Made by a program: the position numbers and the translations under genes. The notes under the pieces were generated by a model. That model was given only the letters and a program-made list of their open reading frames with translations. It did no database searches and was not told where the DNA came from. Below are positions 776-9,600 of a DNA stretch of 64,000 bases, piece after piece (position 1 is the stretch's first letter; every line of letters begins with the position of its first letter). Source of the DNA: a virus; IMG/VR virus record IMGVR_UViG_3300028827_000100, positions 1-64,000 of that record. One strand, written 5' to 3'.

Positions 776-1942
776 GTGAAGAAGGTGAGAAAGATATTAA
801 AGAGAAACAGAAGCAATGTTAATGTGATAGAGTTCGGTGACTGTCGTGAAATCCTGAAGCGATGGATTGACGAAGGGGTACAAGTTCATACTTGTGTAAC
901 ATCTCCACCTTACTACGGGTTAAGAGATTACGGCGTGGATGGACAGATAGGTATGGAAGAAACACCCGAAGAATATGTTGCTAACTTGGTTGAAATATTT
1001 CGTCTTGTTCGAAAGGTGTTGCGTGACGATGGGACGTTGTGGTTGAATTTGGGGGATAGTTATGCCTCCAATTTGTATATGAGAAATGCACATAAATACA
1101 AAGACAGAAAAGATGTTAGGGGTGGGGAGTATAAAATTAAAGCAAAAGATTTGATGGGTATCCCGTGGCGAGTAGCCTTCGCACTGCAAGCCGATGGCTG
1201 GTACTTGAGACAAGATATAATCTGGCACAAGCCAAATCCGATGCCAGAGGCTGTAGCTGATAGATGTACAAAGGCGCATGAATATATATTTCTGTTGAGT
1301 AAATCCAAGAAATATTATTATGACCAACTGGCTACACTGGAACCAGCTATTAGCGGAATTAAATCCCCTGGAAAGTCAAGAACAGATAGTTACCACAAAT
1401 TAATTTTACCGGATGGCACACCCCCGTTTCAGCAAGAAGTCAAATCTTGGGGAAGTATTGATGGTAATCGAAACAAACATTCTGTTTGGACTGTTACTCT
1501 AACCCCATACAAAGAGGCTCATTTTGCGACGTATCCACCGTCTTTGATAGAGCCGTGCATTCTTGCCGGAACATCCGAAAAAGGGTGTTGTCCGGTTTGT
1601 GGTTCTCCGTGGGAGCGCAAAATTAAAAGGAGAAAAACAGGTTCTGTCAAGCCAAGAACTTTTGGTAAATCTGGGAACAAAGACAGGACAGATATTGGAT
1701 GGGTATATGAAGGTTTGATTACAACAACCGTTGGTTGGAGACCTACTTGCAGTTGTAATGCGGGAGACCCCGTACCATGCATTGTTCTTGACCCATTTAT
1801 GGGGAGTGGTACAACAGCGGCGGTGGCTGTAAAGCATAATCGAAATTATATAGGTTGCGAACTGAACAAAGAATATAAAAAGTTACAAGATGAAAGAATT
1901 AAGTTGGCGAAAATCGACAAATATGGTTTTTTTTGGTTTTAA
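776..1942 (+). CDS. DNA methyltransferase (N4-cytosine/N6-adenine type)
   Basis: A 388-residue AdoMet-dependent DNA amino-methyltransferase. The catalytic motif IV is SPPYYG (about residues 43-48), near the N-terminus. The AdoMet-binding motif I, LDPFMGSGTT, lies near residue 340, so the order is the beta-class arrangement. SPPY favours N4-cytosine methylation, though N6-adenine cannot be excluded. Between them sit two cysteine pairs (CCPVC near residue 265 and CSC...C near 325) that could hold zinc. GTG 776 is used because AGGAGG ends 10 nt upstream. No restriction endonuclease is adjacent, so it is probably an orphan enzyme protecting phage DNA from host restriction or marking it. A second, different methyltransferase is at 8209. 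Confidence 0.93.
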   Translation: MKKVRKILKRNRSNVNVIEFGDCREILKRWIDEGVQVHTCVTSPPYYGLRDYGVDGQIGMEETPEEYVANLVEIFRLVRKVLRDDGTLWLNLGDSYASNLYMRNAHKYKDRKDVRGGEYKIKAKDLMGIPWRVAFALQADGWYLRQDIIWHKPNPMPEAVADRCTKAHEYIFLLSKSKKYYYDQLATLEPAISGIKSPGKSRTDSYHKLILPDGTPPFQQEVKSWGSIDGNRNKHSVWTVTLTPYKEAHFATYPPSLIEPCILAGTSEKGCCPVCGSPWERKIKRRKTGSVKPRTFGKSGNKDRTDIGWVYEGLITTTVGWRPTCSCNAGDPVPCIVLDPFMGSGTTAAVAVKHNRNYIGCELNKEYKKLQDERIKLAKIDKYGFFWF

Positions 1943-2968: not shown

Positions 2969-2998
2969 GTTTTATCCGGTATGAGAGGAGGAAAAAAA

Positions 2999-3862
2999 AT
3001 GTTTGAAGTGATTGAAAAACTGAATAAGGATTTGAAGGAAGCGGCAAAGAGACTTGAAGGGAGGGAATGCAGGTATCTCGTTGATGCATATTACATGATT
3101 CAAGAGTATAGAAAGTCTCTTGCAAATCAAATCAGGATGTCCGGCGATGAACCTAACGCCCTGATTGGCTGGATGTTTGAGCAGGCAAAGGTTGTTGAGA
3201 ACAACATCAAAAGAGCGTTAGATGTTTACACTGACGAAAATCCTGTTGGCGTCTGGATGAAATCAATCAAAGGCATTGGCCCTGTTCTTGCGGCAGGATT
3301 ACTTGCTCATATAGACATAGAGAAAGCACCTACTGTTGGGCACATCTGGTCATTTGCCGGACTTGACCCCACGAAGAAGTGGGGGAAGGGGCAGAAGAGA
3401 CCGTGGAATGCACGGTTGAAAACTTTATGCTGGAAGATAGGAGATTGTTTTGTTAAGGTCTCAAATCGCCCTGATGATTTGTATGGTAAGCTGTACAAGG
3501 AGAGAAAAGAATATGAAATCAGCAAAAACTTGAGAGGGGAATATGCAGAGCAGGCGGCAGAAATTTTGAGAACAAAAAATATAGGTCGTGACACGGAAGC
3601 GTACAAATATTATGTTCAGGGGCTTCTGCCGCCGGGCCATATAGACATGAGGGCAAGAAGATATGCTGTTAAACAGTTCCTTGCTGATTTACACTATGTA
3701 TGGTATAGATACCATTTTAAGAAGGAGCCGCCAAAACCGTATCCTATAGCTATACTTGGCCATGCTCATGAGAGGGAAAAGCCATTGTTTAGAACGATTG
3801 TTCCGGCAAAGCGAGCCATAGAAAAGGATAGTACCCGGAATAGGGAGCGAAAAAGTATATAG
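2999..3862 (+). CDS. Orphan IS110-like protein (C-terminal Tnp/HhH part only)
   Basis: A 287-residue protein. ATG 2999 is used because AGGAGG lies just upstream and inside the longer frame from 2981. Residues 88-107 form a helix-hairpin-helix (IKGIGPVLAAGLL). It is followed by AGLDP at 120-124 and a basic stretch GKGQKRPWNARLKTL, the arrangement of the C-terminal domain of IS110/IS116/IS902 recombinases (Pfam Transposase_20). The usual N-terminal DEDD RuvC-like domain is absent: residues 1-85 are helical. No Ser stands where the catalytic Ser of the Tnp domain is normally found after GLDP; TKKWGKG is there instead. A further helical tail (150-245) is not typical of IS110. No IS ends are seen. 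The repeat array at 3775-4054 starts within the last codons. Probably a domesticated nucleic-acid-binding protein; recombinase activity looks unlikely. Confidence 0.85.
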   Translation: MFEVIEKLNKDLKEAAKRLEGRECRYLVDAYYMIQEYRKSLANQIRMSGDEPNALIGWMFEQAKVVENNIKRALDVYTDENPVGVWMKSIKGIGPVLAAGLLAHIDIEKAPTVGHIWSFAGLDPTKKWGKGQKRPWNARLKTLCWKIGDCFVKVSNRPDDLYGKLYKERKEYEISKNLRGEYAEQAAEILRTKNIGRDTEAYKYYVQGLLPPGHIDMRARRYAVKQFLADLHYVWYRYHFKKEPPKPYPIAILGHAHEREKPLFRTIVPAKRAIEKDSTRNRERKSI

Positions 3863-4054
3863 CCATAAGGATGGATAGCACCAACTTGGTTGAGTGAGCC
3901 TTATGAATTGCGGATGGGTTTATGCCATGTGAGTAGAGTGAGCCATCGAAAAAGAGCGAGTCATGATTAGTGAGAGTACCAAAAAAGTTAGAACGGGTCA
4001 TATCCATTGAGAGTACCACAACACCCGTGCGAATTATGTGACGAGAGTGCACCA
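3775..4054 (+). repeat. Degenerate 18/36-nt repeat array downstream of the IS110-like gene
   Basis: 10-nt cores recur with mostly 8-nt variable segments between them. Cores start at 3775, 3809, 3827, 3845, 3856, 3874, 3892, 3918, 3936, 3954, 3972, 3991, 4009, 4027 and 4045. Two types tend to alternate. Type A ends in GCCA/GTCA (AAGCGAGCCA, TATATAGCCA, GAGCGAGTCA, GAACGGGTCA). Type B resembles GAGAGTACCA (GATAGTACCC, GATAGCACCA, GAGAGTACCA twice, GAGTGCACCA). From 3936 to 4054 the spacing is 18, 18, 19, 18, 18, 18. Segments after type A cores all begin with T. The array overlaps the 3' end of the IS110-like gene by about 90 bp and leaves 3863-4089 without a gene. It is not a CRISPR: the units are too short and degenerate. 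It may be a transcribed RNA, perhaps guide-like, or a binding array for the adjacent protein. Confidence 0.7.
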
Positions 4055-4089: not shown

Positions 4090-4416
4090 ATGAAAGTAGG
4101 TGATACTGGCAATGTTAACGTGGAGAATCTTAAGGTTGAGGATGGTGCTACAAAAATGAATATAGTCGGCGGGTTTGGGATTGTGCATGATTATCTTTCT
4201 GAATTGAGTGCTGTAATTGATACTCTTGAGACAAGACTCAAACCTGTAACAGGGAAGATGTCCCTAAAGCCATGCGATGAAGAAAAGAAGATTAGCGGTG
4301 TCAGTTTTGTGGGGCATTTAGAATCCGAGGTTGGCGTAAATTTACGGGAGACGATTGCGCACGTACAGGAGGCAACTGAAAGATTGCATAATATAATTAT
4401 GAATCTTGAAATTTAA
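4090..4416 (+). CDS. Hypothetical protein downstream of the repeat array
   Basis: A 108-residue protein starting at ATG 4090 with a strong GGGGGTGATG ribosome-binding site in the gap after the repeat array. The N-terminus is Gly/Val/Asp-rich and the C-terminal half looks helical (SEVGVNLRETIAHVQEATER). No known family recognised. Two hairpins follow at once, so it probably closes a transcription unit that includes the IS110-like gene and array. It could be functionally linked to them, but that is only positional inference. Confidence 0.75.
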   Translation: MKVGDTGNVNVENLKVEDGATKMNIVGGFGIVHDYLSELSAVIDTLETRLKPVTGKMSLKPCDEEKKISGVSFVGHLESEVGVNLRETIAHVQEATERLHNIIMNLEI

Positions 4417-4419
4417 GTT

Positions 4420-4493
4420 CCCGCCATTAGCGGCGTGGCGGGCGAATACCTCCTTCTGATTTCGGGGTCGCATTTTGCGACCCCACTTTTTTT
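4420..4493 (+). terminator. Tandem hairpins, the second a rho-independent terminator
   Basis: The first hairpin is CCCGCCA (4420-4426) / TGGCGGG (4436-4442) with a 9-nt loop and no T tract. The second is GGGGTCGC (4464-4471) / GCGACCCC (4477-4484) with loop ATTTT, followed by ACTTTTTTT to 4493, a canonical terminator. It separates the 439-4416 unit from the genes beginning at 4510. Confidence 0.85.
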
Positions 4494-7532: not shown

Positions 7533-7616
7533 GTCGGGGTGGTGGAATTGGCAGACACGGAGGTCTCAAAAATCTCTGGCTTGTCCGTGCGGGTTCGAGT
7601 CCCGCTCCCGACACCA
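7533..7616 (+). tRNA. tRNA-Leu(CAA)
   Basis: Acceptor GTCGGGG (7533-7539) pairs with TCCCGAC. The D-arm is TGGTGGAATTGGCAGAC. The anticodon stem GAGGT/ATCTC closes the loop CTCAAAA, giving anticodon CAA, which reads TTG. A short class II variable arm is present. The T-arm GCGGG-TTCGAGT-CCCGC is perfect. Discriminator A and an encoded CCA end it. TTG is frequent in the phage genes, so the tRNA probably supports late translation or replaces a degraded host tRNA. Confidence 0.93.
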
Positions 7617-7996: not shown

Positions 7997-8198
7997 CGTA
8001 ATGGGAATTTTACTTGGCAGTGTGATGTTTGTGTTTTTTATAGAGAACATTTCGGACTTTCTGTCTTACAGGGTTGAGTCGAGAAGGTGCGGCCCTTATT
8101 TGAAAAGAGAATATGTTGCAATATCAAAGAAGCATATGTGGAATGCGGTACTTTATCTGCTACTCGCAATTGCCGTGTTTGTTGCGGTTTTTGTTTAG
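7983..8198 (+). CDS. Small membrane protein
   Basis: 71 residues from ATG 7983 (GGGGGAGGTG upstream). Two hydrophobic segments: about residues 5-22 (VMGILLGSVMFVFF) and the last 18 (AVLYLLLAIAVFVAVFV), with a basic link (SRRCGPYLKRE). Probably an inner-membrane protein. No family recognised; superinfection-exclusion and host-takeover roles are both possible but unsupported. Confidence 0.75.
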   Translation: MNGFDVMGILLGSVMFVFFIENISDFLSYRVESRRCGPYLKREYVAISKKHMWNAVLYLLLAIAVFVAVFV

Positions 8199-8208
8199 GA
8201 GGAAAAGG

Positions 8209-9600
8209 GTGAGTGTTGAATTGTTTACTACTCAAGATTCGATAGCATGGCTTTTGCTTGGCAAATGTGAAAGGGCTATGGGGGAAATGCCAGACAACTA
8301 TGTGGATACTATTATTACTGACCCGCCTTATGGCCTTCAGTTTATGGGGAAGAAGTGGGATTATGATGTGCCAAGTGTAGAGACGTTTCAGGAAATGTTG
8401 AGGGTGGCAAAGCCCGGCGCAACATTGCTTTGCTTTGCGGGCGCAAGAACTCAACATCGGATGGCAGTGAATATTGAAGATGCGGGATGGGAACTGAAGG
8501 ATTGCATTATGTGGATTTACGGATCAGGATTCCCGAAGGCGACAGATATAAGTAAACAGATTGACAGGAAATTTGGGGTTAAGGGGGAAGTTATGGACAA
8601 GAGAAAGGGTTGTAGTCGAAAGCGTATTTATAATGTGGCGGTATATTCTGGATCATCAGGCAGGGAATATGAGATAGTTGCTCCTACCACCCCCGAAGCA
8701 AAACTCTGGAACGGCTGGAAATCACATGGGCTCAAACCTGCCTATGAACCTATTCTCGTAGCAATGAAACCAAACGAAGGTAGCTATGCACAGAACGCAT
8801 TGAAATGGGGTGTGAGCGGGTTGAATATAGATGGTGCGAGGATAGAATTAAAGGGTATTGAAGAACATACTACGGAAGCAAAAAGCGGTCTTGGTAAAAG
8901 GATATATGGAAAATATAAAAATAAACCAACCATAACATCTGATTTGCCGAGATATAACATTAAAGGTCGCTACCCCGCCAATATCATCCTTGACGAAGAA
9001 GCCGCAAGAATGCTGGATGAACAAATAGGCGACCAAGGCGGTGCATCACGATTCTTCTATGTTGCCAAGGCATCAAGGGCAGAAAGAAACATGGGGCTTG
9101 AAGACTTACCCGCCAAAGAGAGGGCCAATATCAATAAAATGATGGGAAGTGATGACAACAGTATGCTTACAGGTAGTGGAAATAAGCGGAATAATAAATT
9201 GCAAAACTTCCACCCCACTGTCAAACCTCTGGAGTTAATAGTATATTTGTGCAACCTTACCAAAACTCCATTTGGCGGGGTTGTACTTGATCCATATATG
9301 GGAAGTGGCACAACCGGAATTGCGTGCCTCATTACAGGTAGGGATTTTATTGGTATTGAAATGAAGCCTGATTATTATAAAGTGGCTTGTGAGAGAAGTA
9401 AGTATGTGAGTAGAAAGTTGCTCAAAATCAAACATAATCCTTTTGAACTCATATCTAATCTGGATGATTCAAATGAACTTGAAAGGTTGATTAAGAATTA
9501 TTCAAGGTTTGTGTGTGGGCACAAACTTAACAATCCAAAATTGAATAAAAGTAAGGGGGGTGAAAAAAACAGGCAAGGTGATACACTTTTTAAATATTGA
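8209..9600 (+). CDS. DNA methyltransferase (beta class, DPPY)
   Basis: About 463 residues from GTG 8209, chosen for AGGAGG at 8197-8202. Motif IV TDPPYG lies at residues 37-42. Motif I, LDPYMGSGTTG, lies near residue 360, followed by FIGIEMKPDYYKVA. The long central part includes a GGASRFFYVAKASRAERN segment seen in phage site-specific methyltransferases. DPPY fits N6-adenine modification, N4-cytosine being less likely. Organisation differs from the enzyme at 776 (SPPY), so the phage probably modifies two sequences. The C-terminal tail after residue 400 is Lys/Asn-rich and may be a recognition or accessory region. No restriction partner is seen. Confidence 0.93.
   Translation: MSVELFTTQDSIAWLLLGKCERAMGEMPDNYVDTIITDPPYGLQFMGKKWDYDVPSVETFQEMLRVAKPGATLLCFAGARTQHRMAVNIEDAGWELKDCIMWIYGSGFPKATDISKQIDRKFGVKGEVMDKRKGCSRKRIYNVAVYSGSSGREYEIVAPTTPEAKLWNGWKSHGLKPAYEPILVAMKPNEGSYAQNALKWGVSGLNIDGARIELKGIEEHTTEAKSGLGKRIYGKYKNKPTITSDLPRYNIKGRYPANIILDEEAARMLDEQIGDQGGASRFFYVAKASRAERNMGLEDLPAKERANINKMMGSDDNSMLTGSGNKRNNKLQNFHPTVKPLELIVYLCNLTKTPFGGVVLDPYMGSGTTGIACLITGRDFIGIEMKPDYYKVACERSKYVSRKLLKIKHNPFELISNLDDSNELERLIKNYSRFVCGHKLNNPKLNKSKGGEKNRQGDTLFKY

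What the first reader, a model, noticed from the sequence alone, without database searches (positions are those of the whole stretch)
2999..4054. Orphan IS110-like protein coupled to a degenerate 18/36-nt array
The sequence shows a protein with the IS110 C-terminal HhH/Tnp part, immediately followed (overlapping its last ~90 bp) by an array of short cores and variable segments and then a gene-free stretch. IS110 enzymes are known to use a structured bridge RNA with short target-specific guide loops encoded next to the transposase. Here there is no IS element. My inference is a phage-domesticated system in which a non-transposing IS110 relative acts with an RNA (or DNA) array, for example to recognise many sequences.
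Basis: partly seen in the sequence, partly recalled or inferred. Interest (0 to 1): 0.92.

Follow-up and report, generated by a model that had tools for sequence, protein, structure and literature searches.

The report
Phage TIGR-TasA RNA-guided DNA-binding locus
The protein and its 18/36-base array are a member of the recently described TIGR-Tas family of RNA-guided DNA-binding systems, carried by a phage; in a relative of this system two of the guides match a rival phage-like element in the same bacterium, which hints at what such systems are for.

Summary
Window 2999-3862 encodes a 287-aa Nop-domain protein with no nuclease. It is followed by, and overlaps, an array of alternating ~10-nt cores and ~8-nt variable segments (3809-4054). 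A core profile built from homologues only scores 74.7 on this array, 15.1 at the next-best place on the same strand of the window (at most 14.5 elsewhere in the 106-kb record), and at most 26.3 in 2000 shuffles.

It is a TIGR-TasA system (Faure et al. 2025): NCBIfam TIGR_Tas 216 bits (cut-off 100), IS110 model 28 bits (cut-off 140), fold closest to TasR/TasH, and dual-repeat arrays beside 90 of 91 homologues. Kind: new member, with a short degenerate array.

New here is a natural target lead in a relative (59-60% identical, prophage of Acidobacteriaceae KBS 96). The published tandem rule (spacer A followed by reverse complement of B) gives a 16/16 and a 14/16 match 0.9 kb apart, both in early genes of a second small phage-like element of that genome. 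Wrong-geometry controls gave none, and 79 other genomes never gave two different guides that close. This favours RNA-guided interference between mobile elements. The window's own targets stay unknown.

The parts
2999..3862 (+). tasA: 287-aa solo Nop-domain TIGR-associated protein, no nuclease domain; last 16-18 codons are array sequence read in frame
   Evidence: NF052498 TIGR_Tas_endo 216.3 bits, cut-off 100; PDB 9mty TasR E=9e-15 and TasH E=6e-10 by sequence, top fold matches
2987..2991 (+). ribosome-binding site GGAGG of tasA
   Evidence: sequence
3809..4054 (+). TIGR dual-repeat array, alternating edge-type (GAGCGAGCCA-like) and loop-type (GAGAGTACCA-like) 10-nt cores with mostly 8-nt spacers
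   Evidence: homologue-derived profile
3809..3854 (+). block 1: edge AAGCGAGCCA, spacer TAGAAAAG, loop GATAGTACCC, spacer GGAATAGG, start of edge GAGCGA; lies inside the tasA frame
3845..3865 (+). edge repeat split by 11 nt (GAGCGA-AAAAGTATATA-GCCA); the insert holds the tasA stop codon 3860-3862
   Evidence: sequence
3866..3901 (+). block 2: spacer TAAGGATG, loop GATAGCACCA, spacer ACTTGGTT, edge GAGTGAGCCT
3902..3935 (+). irregular 34-nt stretch (a spacer plus a core broken by insertion, or one expanded spacer)
3936..4054 (+). block 3, best-kept part: cores at 3936, 3954, 3972, 3991, 4009, 4027, 4043/4045; spacers TCGAAAAA, TGATTAGT, AAAAAGTTA, TATCCATT, CAACACCC, TGTGACGA (TGTGAC if the last core is read from 4043)
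   Evidence: chain score 74.7
4464..4493 (+). intrinsic terminator (9-bp stem, T7) downstream of ORF 4090-4416; likely end of a transcript covering tasA, array and that ORF
   Evidence: no transcript data

Best explanation
This is a phage-encoded TIGR-TasA system. The array is transcribed with or after tasA and should be cut within the edge repeats into ~36-nt guide RNAs (edge half, spacer A, loop repeat, spacer B, edge half). A TasA dimer should hold one guide through the box C/D-like ends of the two repeats. Spacer A would pair with one DNA strand and spacer B with the other, next to it, so that the target reads A + reverse complement of B. Having no nuclease, TasA would bind and probably bend the target and block transcription or replication rather than cut. 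For this clade the best lead is that guides aim at early or replication genes of rival phages or phage satellites. Shown here: protein family, fold, array anatomy, array conservation, and natural target matches in one relative. Inferred from the literature: RNA processing, dimer, pairing, bending. Inferred only: the blocking effect, and the same role in this phage. The confidence given is for the identity and working principle; the role against rival elements is about 0.4.
For: Family: NCBIfam TIGR_Tas 216 bits against cut-off 100, IS110 28 against 140. Sequence and fold nearest TasR 9mty and TasH. Array anatomy. Dual-repeat arrays in 90 of 91 homologue loci, next to the gene. Cores held, spacers turned over, unit gain and loss partly in steps of 36/54/72/108 nt. 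Target lead in the KBS 96 prophage: a 16/16 match at 6329962-6329977 and a 14/16 match at 6329052-6329067. They lie in an HTH_17 regulator and an O-like replication gene of a small element with integrase, repressor, TerS, capsid and protease. Controls: 11 wrong-geometry queries gave 0 hits; 79 other genomes gave 16/16 at 0.0042 per guide-genome and never two different guides within 2 kb. The TIGR prophage carries a homologue of the targeted replication gene (59% over 123 residues) whose equivalent site differs at 7 of the 14 matched bases.
Against: No RNA or binding data exist for this locus. The window's array is short and degenerate: an 11-nt insert in one edge repeat, a 34-nt irregular stretch, one broken alternation. 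Four guides of the window match viral contigs only at chance level and no contig twice. The target lead rests on one relative. In Halomonas the best match (15/16) is in ccmF and looks like chance; in a Pyrinomonadaceae MAG the 16/16 match is a low-complexity host intergenic site; Propionivibrio gave none.
Confidence: 0.9

Rival explanations
1. A decaying TIGR locus: TasA is intact but the array has drifted and makes few or no working guides.
For: Degenerate cores, the 11-nt insert and the 34-nt irregular stretch; lag-36 signal too weak to stand out on its own; only ~6 units, where most relatives have 12-94 cores.
Against: The best-kept block keeps loop cores at full match (GAGAGTACCA twice), and its variant edge cores (GAACGGGTCA, GAGCGAGTCA) resemble the regular edge repeat GAACGAGTCA of L043, L053 and L086. 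Loosely kept arrays also occur beside intact genes (L007, L012, L063).
Confidence: 0.3
2. A domesticated IS110 transposase with a bridge-RNA-derived array, acting in recombination.
For: Distant relation to the IS110 C-terminal domain (Pfam 29 bits; IS621 E=3e-5 by profile).
Against: No DEDD domain, IS110 model 28 bits against a cut-off of 140, IS110 folds rank below all TIGR Tas structures, dual-repeat arrays instead of one two-loop RNA.
Confidence: 0.03
3. The repeats are DNA sites bound by the protein (iterons, centromere-like), not a source of guide RNAs.
For: Short regular cores next to the gene for their likely binder; no RNA data here.
Against: Spacers have near-constant length and turn over faster than cores; three relatives of the family make 36-nt RNAs from such arrays (PMC12045711); target matches follow the RNA tandem-spacer rule.
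Confidence: 0.04
4. Guides act on the phage's own genome, as regulators.
For: Solo TasA lacks a nuclease, so self-binding would not be lethal.
Against: Of 698 guide pairs tested against the held DNA of their own records (most of each record), none match exactly; matches with 1-2 mismatches are no more frequent than for shuffled pairs. No excess in 2.8 Mb of held virus DNA.
Confidence: 0.08

Closest known systems
TIGR-TasA, dual-repeat clade (e.g. Flavonifractor plautii FpTIGR; Faure et al. 2025, PMC12045711)
   Same: Solo Nop-domain protein, adjacent array of two alternating ~10-nt repeats with short spacers, 36-nt unit, phage location
   Different: 8-nt rather than 9-nt spacers (as in the Salicola phage system, 16 nt in all), GAGNGNRCCA-type cores, short degenerate array that begins inside the tasA frame
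TIGR-TasH of Salicola phage CGphi29
   Same: Nop domain alignable (27.5% over 59%; TasH E=6e-10 in PDB), phage-borne, 16-nt total spacer
   Different: TasH has an N-terminal HNH nuclease; none here
TIGR-TasR (PDB 9mty)
   Same: Best solved relative by sequence and fold
   Different: TasR has a RuvC nuclease and cuts; none here
IS110 / IS621 bridge-RNA recombinases
   Same: Distantly related RNA-binding domain
   Different: No DEDD domain, no IS element, array instead of bridge RNA; family cut-off not met
CRISPR arrays
   Same: Repeats alternating with variable spacers
   Different: No cas genes seen next to it; two alternating 10-nt repeats, 8-nt spacers read as pairs

Membership tests
TIGR-Tas | Tas Nop-domain protein | tested here: met
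   NF052498 216.3 bits, cut-off 100; over cut-off in only 1 of 396 genomes of the phylum of G067
TIGR-Tas | Nop fold with coiled coil, closest to TasR/TasH | tested here: met
   Model pLDDT 86, top 11 PDB matches all TIGR Tas
TIGR-Tas | Adjacent array of two alternating 8-12-nt repeats with short spacers, ~36-nt unit | tested here: met
   degenerate in parts. Homologues 90 of 91
TIGR-Tas | Array starts and ends with edge repeat, followed by terminator | tested here: inconclusive
   Starts with an edge core at 3809; no clear final edge repeat after 4054; terminator only at 4464
TIGR-Tas | 36-nt processed RNAs bound by the protein | not testable with these tools
   Needs RNA data
TIGR-Tas | Tandem-spacer pairing with opposite DNA strands | tested here: inconclusive
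   No targets for this locus; natural matches of that geometry in a relative
TasA subtype | No nuclease domain | tested here: met
   287 aa; no RuvC/HNH hit
IS110 transposase | IS110 equivalog model above cut-off, N-terminal DEDD domain | tested here: not met
   28.5 bits against 140; no N-terminal domain
IS110 transposase | Bridge RNA with donor and target loops inside an IS element | tested here: not met
   A repeat array lies there instead; no IS reading frame around it

The most novel reading that the evidence does not exclude
TIGR-TasA systems of this clade are phage weapons against rival mobile elements: guides recognise early-control and replication genes of satellites or co-resident prophages, including homologues of the carrier's own replication gene, sparing the carrier by sequence divergence, and silence them without cutting.
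Probability: 0.4. Interest if true: 0.85.

Novelty: new member of a known kind. Interest (0 to 1): 0.55.

Why it matters
The discoverers of TIGR-Tas state that genuine natural targets are hard to find and that the function of nuclease-free TasA is unclear (PMC12045711). The window locus adds a degenerate member. The follow-up gives a concrete natural target lead in an isolate genome (Acidobacteriaceae KBS 96), with the published pairing geometry, in early genes of a rival phage-like element. That makes the role of TasA directly testable.

Tried and rejected
Tandem-repeat finder and plain lag-36 self-identity do not detect the window array. Guide-target search in own records and in 2.8 Mb of virus DNA: no excess over other orientations or shuffled pairs. 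Window guides against IMG/VR: 12, 35, 26 and 21 exact hits, which is chance for that collection (my estimate from its size), no contig shared. Halomonas 15/16 hit in ccmF: judged chance. Pyrinomonadaceae 16/16 hit: host intergenic, low complexity, undecided. Propionivibrio: none. Plasmids: no homologue; phage records: only four distant ones. PADLOC: no hit. A first array caller overran in G+C-rich loci and was replaced. An Acidobacteriota-wide search for more prophage TIGR loci found only KBS 96 above the cut-off. An earlier count said '91/92 homologue loci'; the right count is 90 of 91.

Full report
WHAT IS THERE. Window 2999-3862 encodes a 287-residue protein with a good ribosome-binding site. 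NCBIfam settles the family: TIGR_Tas_endo NF052498, 216 bits against a curated cut-off of 100, while the IS110 model reaches 28 against 140. By sequence the closest solved structures are TIGR TasR (9mty, E=9e-15) and TasH (E=6e-10), with IS110 recombinases far behind. An AlphaFold model (pLDDT 86) gives the same order by fold: the first 11 PDB matches are all TIGR Tas complexes, then IS110. No RuvC or HNH domain is present, so it is a TasA.

THE ARRAY. The array is too degenerate for repeat finders. A profile of the two core types built only from homologues scores 74.7 at 3936-4054. The next-best place on the same strand of the window scores 15.1, nothing in the rest of the 105,878-base record exceeds 14.5, and 2000 dinucleotide shuffles reach at most 26.3. 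Thirteen core positions lie in three blocks from 3809 to 4054. Unit anatomy: edge-type core (GAGCGAGCCA-like), 8-nt spacer, loop-type core (GAGAGTACCA-like), 8-nt spacer. Two irregularities stand out: an edge repeat split by 11 nt at 3845-3865, whose insert supplies the tasA stop codon, and a 34-nt stretch at 3902-3935. Because 18 nt is six codons, the ORF runs into the array. In homologues the first downstream core usually begins between about 6 nt before and 16 nt after the stop; here it begins 53 nt before it. The tail is also the least certain part of the model. A strong terminator lies at 4464-4493.

HOMOLOGUES. Two viral-collection scans and one genome-collection scan gave 91 homologue loci, some near-duplicates. 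The best self-similarity lag is 36 nt in 76 of 93 sequences. Arrays are called in 90 of 91, upstream, downstream or on both sides of the gene; the exception is L002, on a 209-kb contig of which only 3 kb either side was read. Core sequences vary between loci (GATCGAGACA, GAACGAGTCA, GATTGAAACA and others) but alternate in the same way. Between related arrays the cores differ at 2.8-3.6% of positions and spacers at 10.7%, and whole units of 36, 54, 72 or 108 nt are gained or lost.

COMPARISON WITH THE LITERATURE. Faure et al. (PMC12045711) describe exactly this: solo Nop TasA, dual-repeat arrays, 36-nt tigRNAs, and tandem spacers pairing with opposite strands. They report 8-nt 3' overhangs and no PAM, and leave natural targets and the role of TasA open. 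From the overhang rule I deduced that the target should read A + reverse complement of B, with A and B on either side of the loop repeat. Which core is the loop repeat was inferred from arrays that begin and end with the edge type.

TARGETS. Inside held virus records there is no excess of such targets, own or foreign. In isolate KBS 96, whose prophage carries a TasA 59-60% identical to the window's, one of six guides matches the host chromosome 16/16 at 6329962-6329977. A second matches 14/16 at 6329052-6329067, 0.9 kb away. Both lie in a small integrated element: integrase, HTH_3 repressor, two HTH_17 genes, O-like replication gene, terminase small subunit, capsid, prohead protease, tail-like protein. 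No ORF listed in it looks like a portal or large terminase, so it is a satellite of the capsid-bearing type or a reduced prophage. The 16/16 site is in the first codons of an HTH_17 gene, the 14/16 site near the end of the replication gene.

CONTROLS. Eleven 16-mers of wrong geometry gave no hit in the same genome. The same six targets in 79 other genomes gave two 16/16 hits and 43 hits of 14 nt or more, never two different guides within 2 kb. From these rates the joint chance of the KBS 96 result is about 4 in a million (0.025 x 0.54 x 2000/6.69 million), before allowing for four hosts tested. The TIGR prophage has its own homologue of the targeted replication gene (59% over 123 residues) in which the corresponding site differs at 7 of the 14 matched bases. 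So the guide distinguishes rival from self. Three other hosts gave weaker or no evidence.

MECHANISM. Shown: family, fold, array, constraint, target geometry in one relative. Taken from the literature: processing, dimer, pairing, bend. Inferred: without a nuclease, TasA blocks transcription or replication of the bound gene, and the window's system plays a similar role against rivals of its phage. The window's own targets were not found, and its array may be partly decayed.

VERDICT. A new member of a known kind. The identity is close to certain. The role is a supported lead, not a demonstration.

Noticed in passing
L217:14347-20000 and L218:1-2053 (Acidobacteriaceae KBS 96, about 6.324-6.332 Mb): Small integrated element with integrase, repressor, HTH_17 genes, replication gene, TerS, capsid and protease but no visible portal or large terminase; it holds both guide matches of the other prophage's TIGR array.
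   Followed up: yes
L224:13371-14207 (KBS 96 TIGR prophage): Carrier prophage encodes a homologue of the targeted replication gene; the equivalent site differs at 7 of 14 bases.
   Followed up: partly
L231:14687-14702: 16/16 match of a guide of L091 in a host intergenic region upstream of an M23-peptidase-like gene, near a contig end; low complexity, could be chance.
   Followed up: partly
L002: TasA homologue on a 209-kb viral contig without a recognisable array within about 3 kb.
   Followed up: no
L042/L055, L022/L026, L048/L062, L080/L083: Two different TIGR-bearing virus contigs come from the same metagenome in each pair, a setting for guide-against-rival tests.
   Followed up: no
L036, L052, L073, L092: Arrays with unit lengths other than 36 nt (34, 37, 35, 34) and unusual loop cores such as GAACATCA.
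   Followed up: no
window 776-1942 and 8113-9600: Two DNA methyltransferase genes flank the region (PF01555 E=3e-47; phrog_67 E=6e-60).
   Followed up: no
window 7533-7616: tRNA-Leu (CAA) gene in the phage.
   Followed up: no
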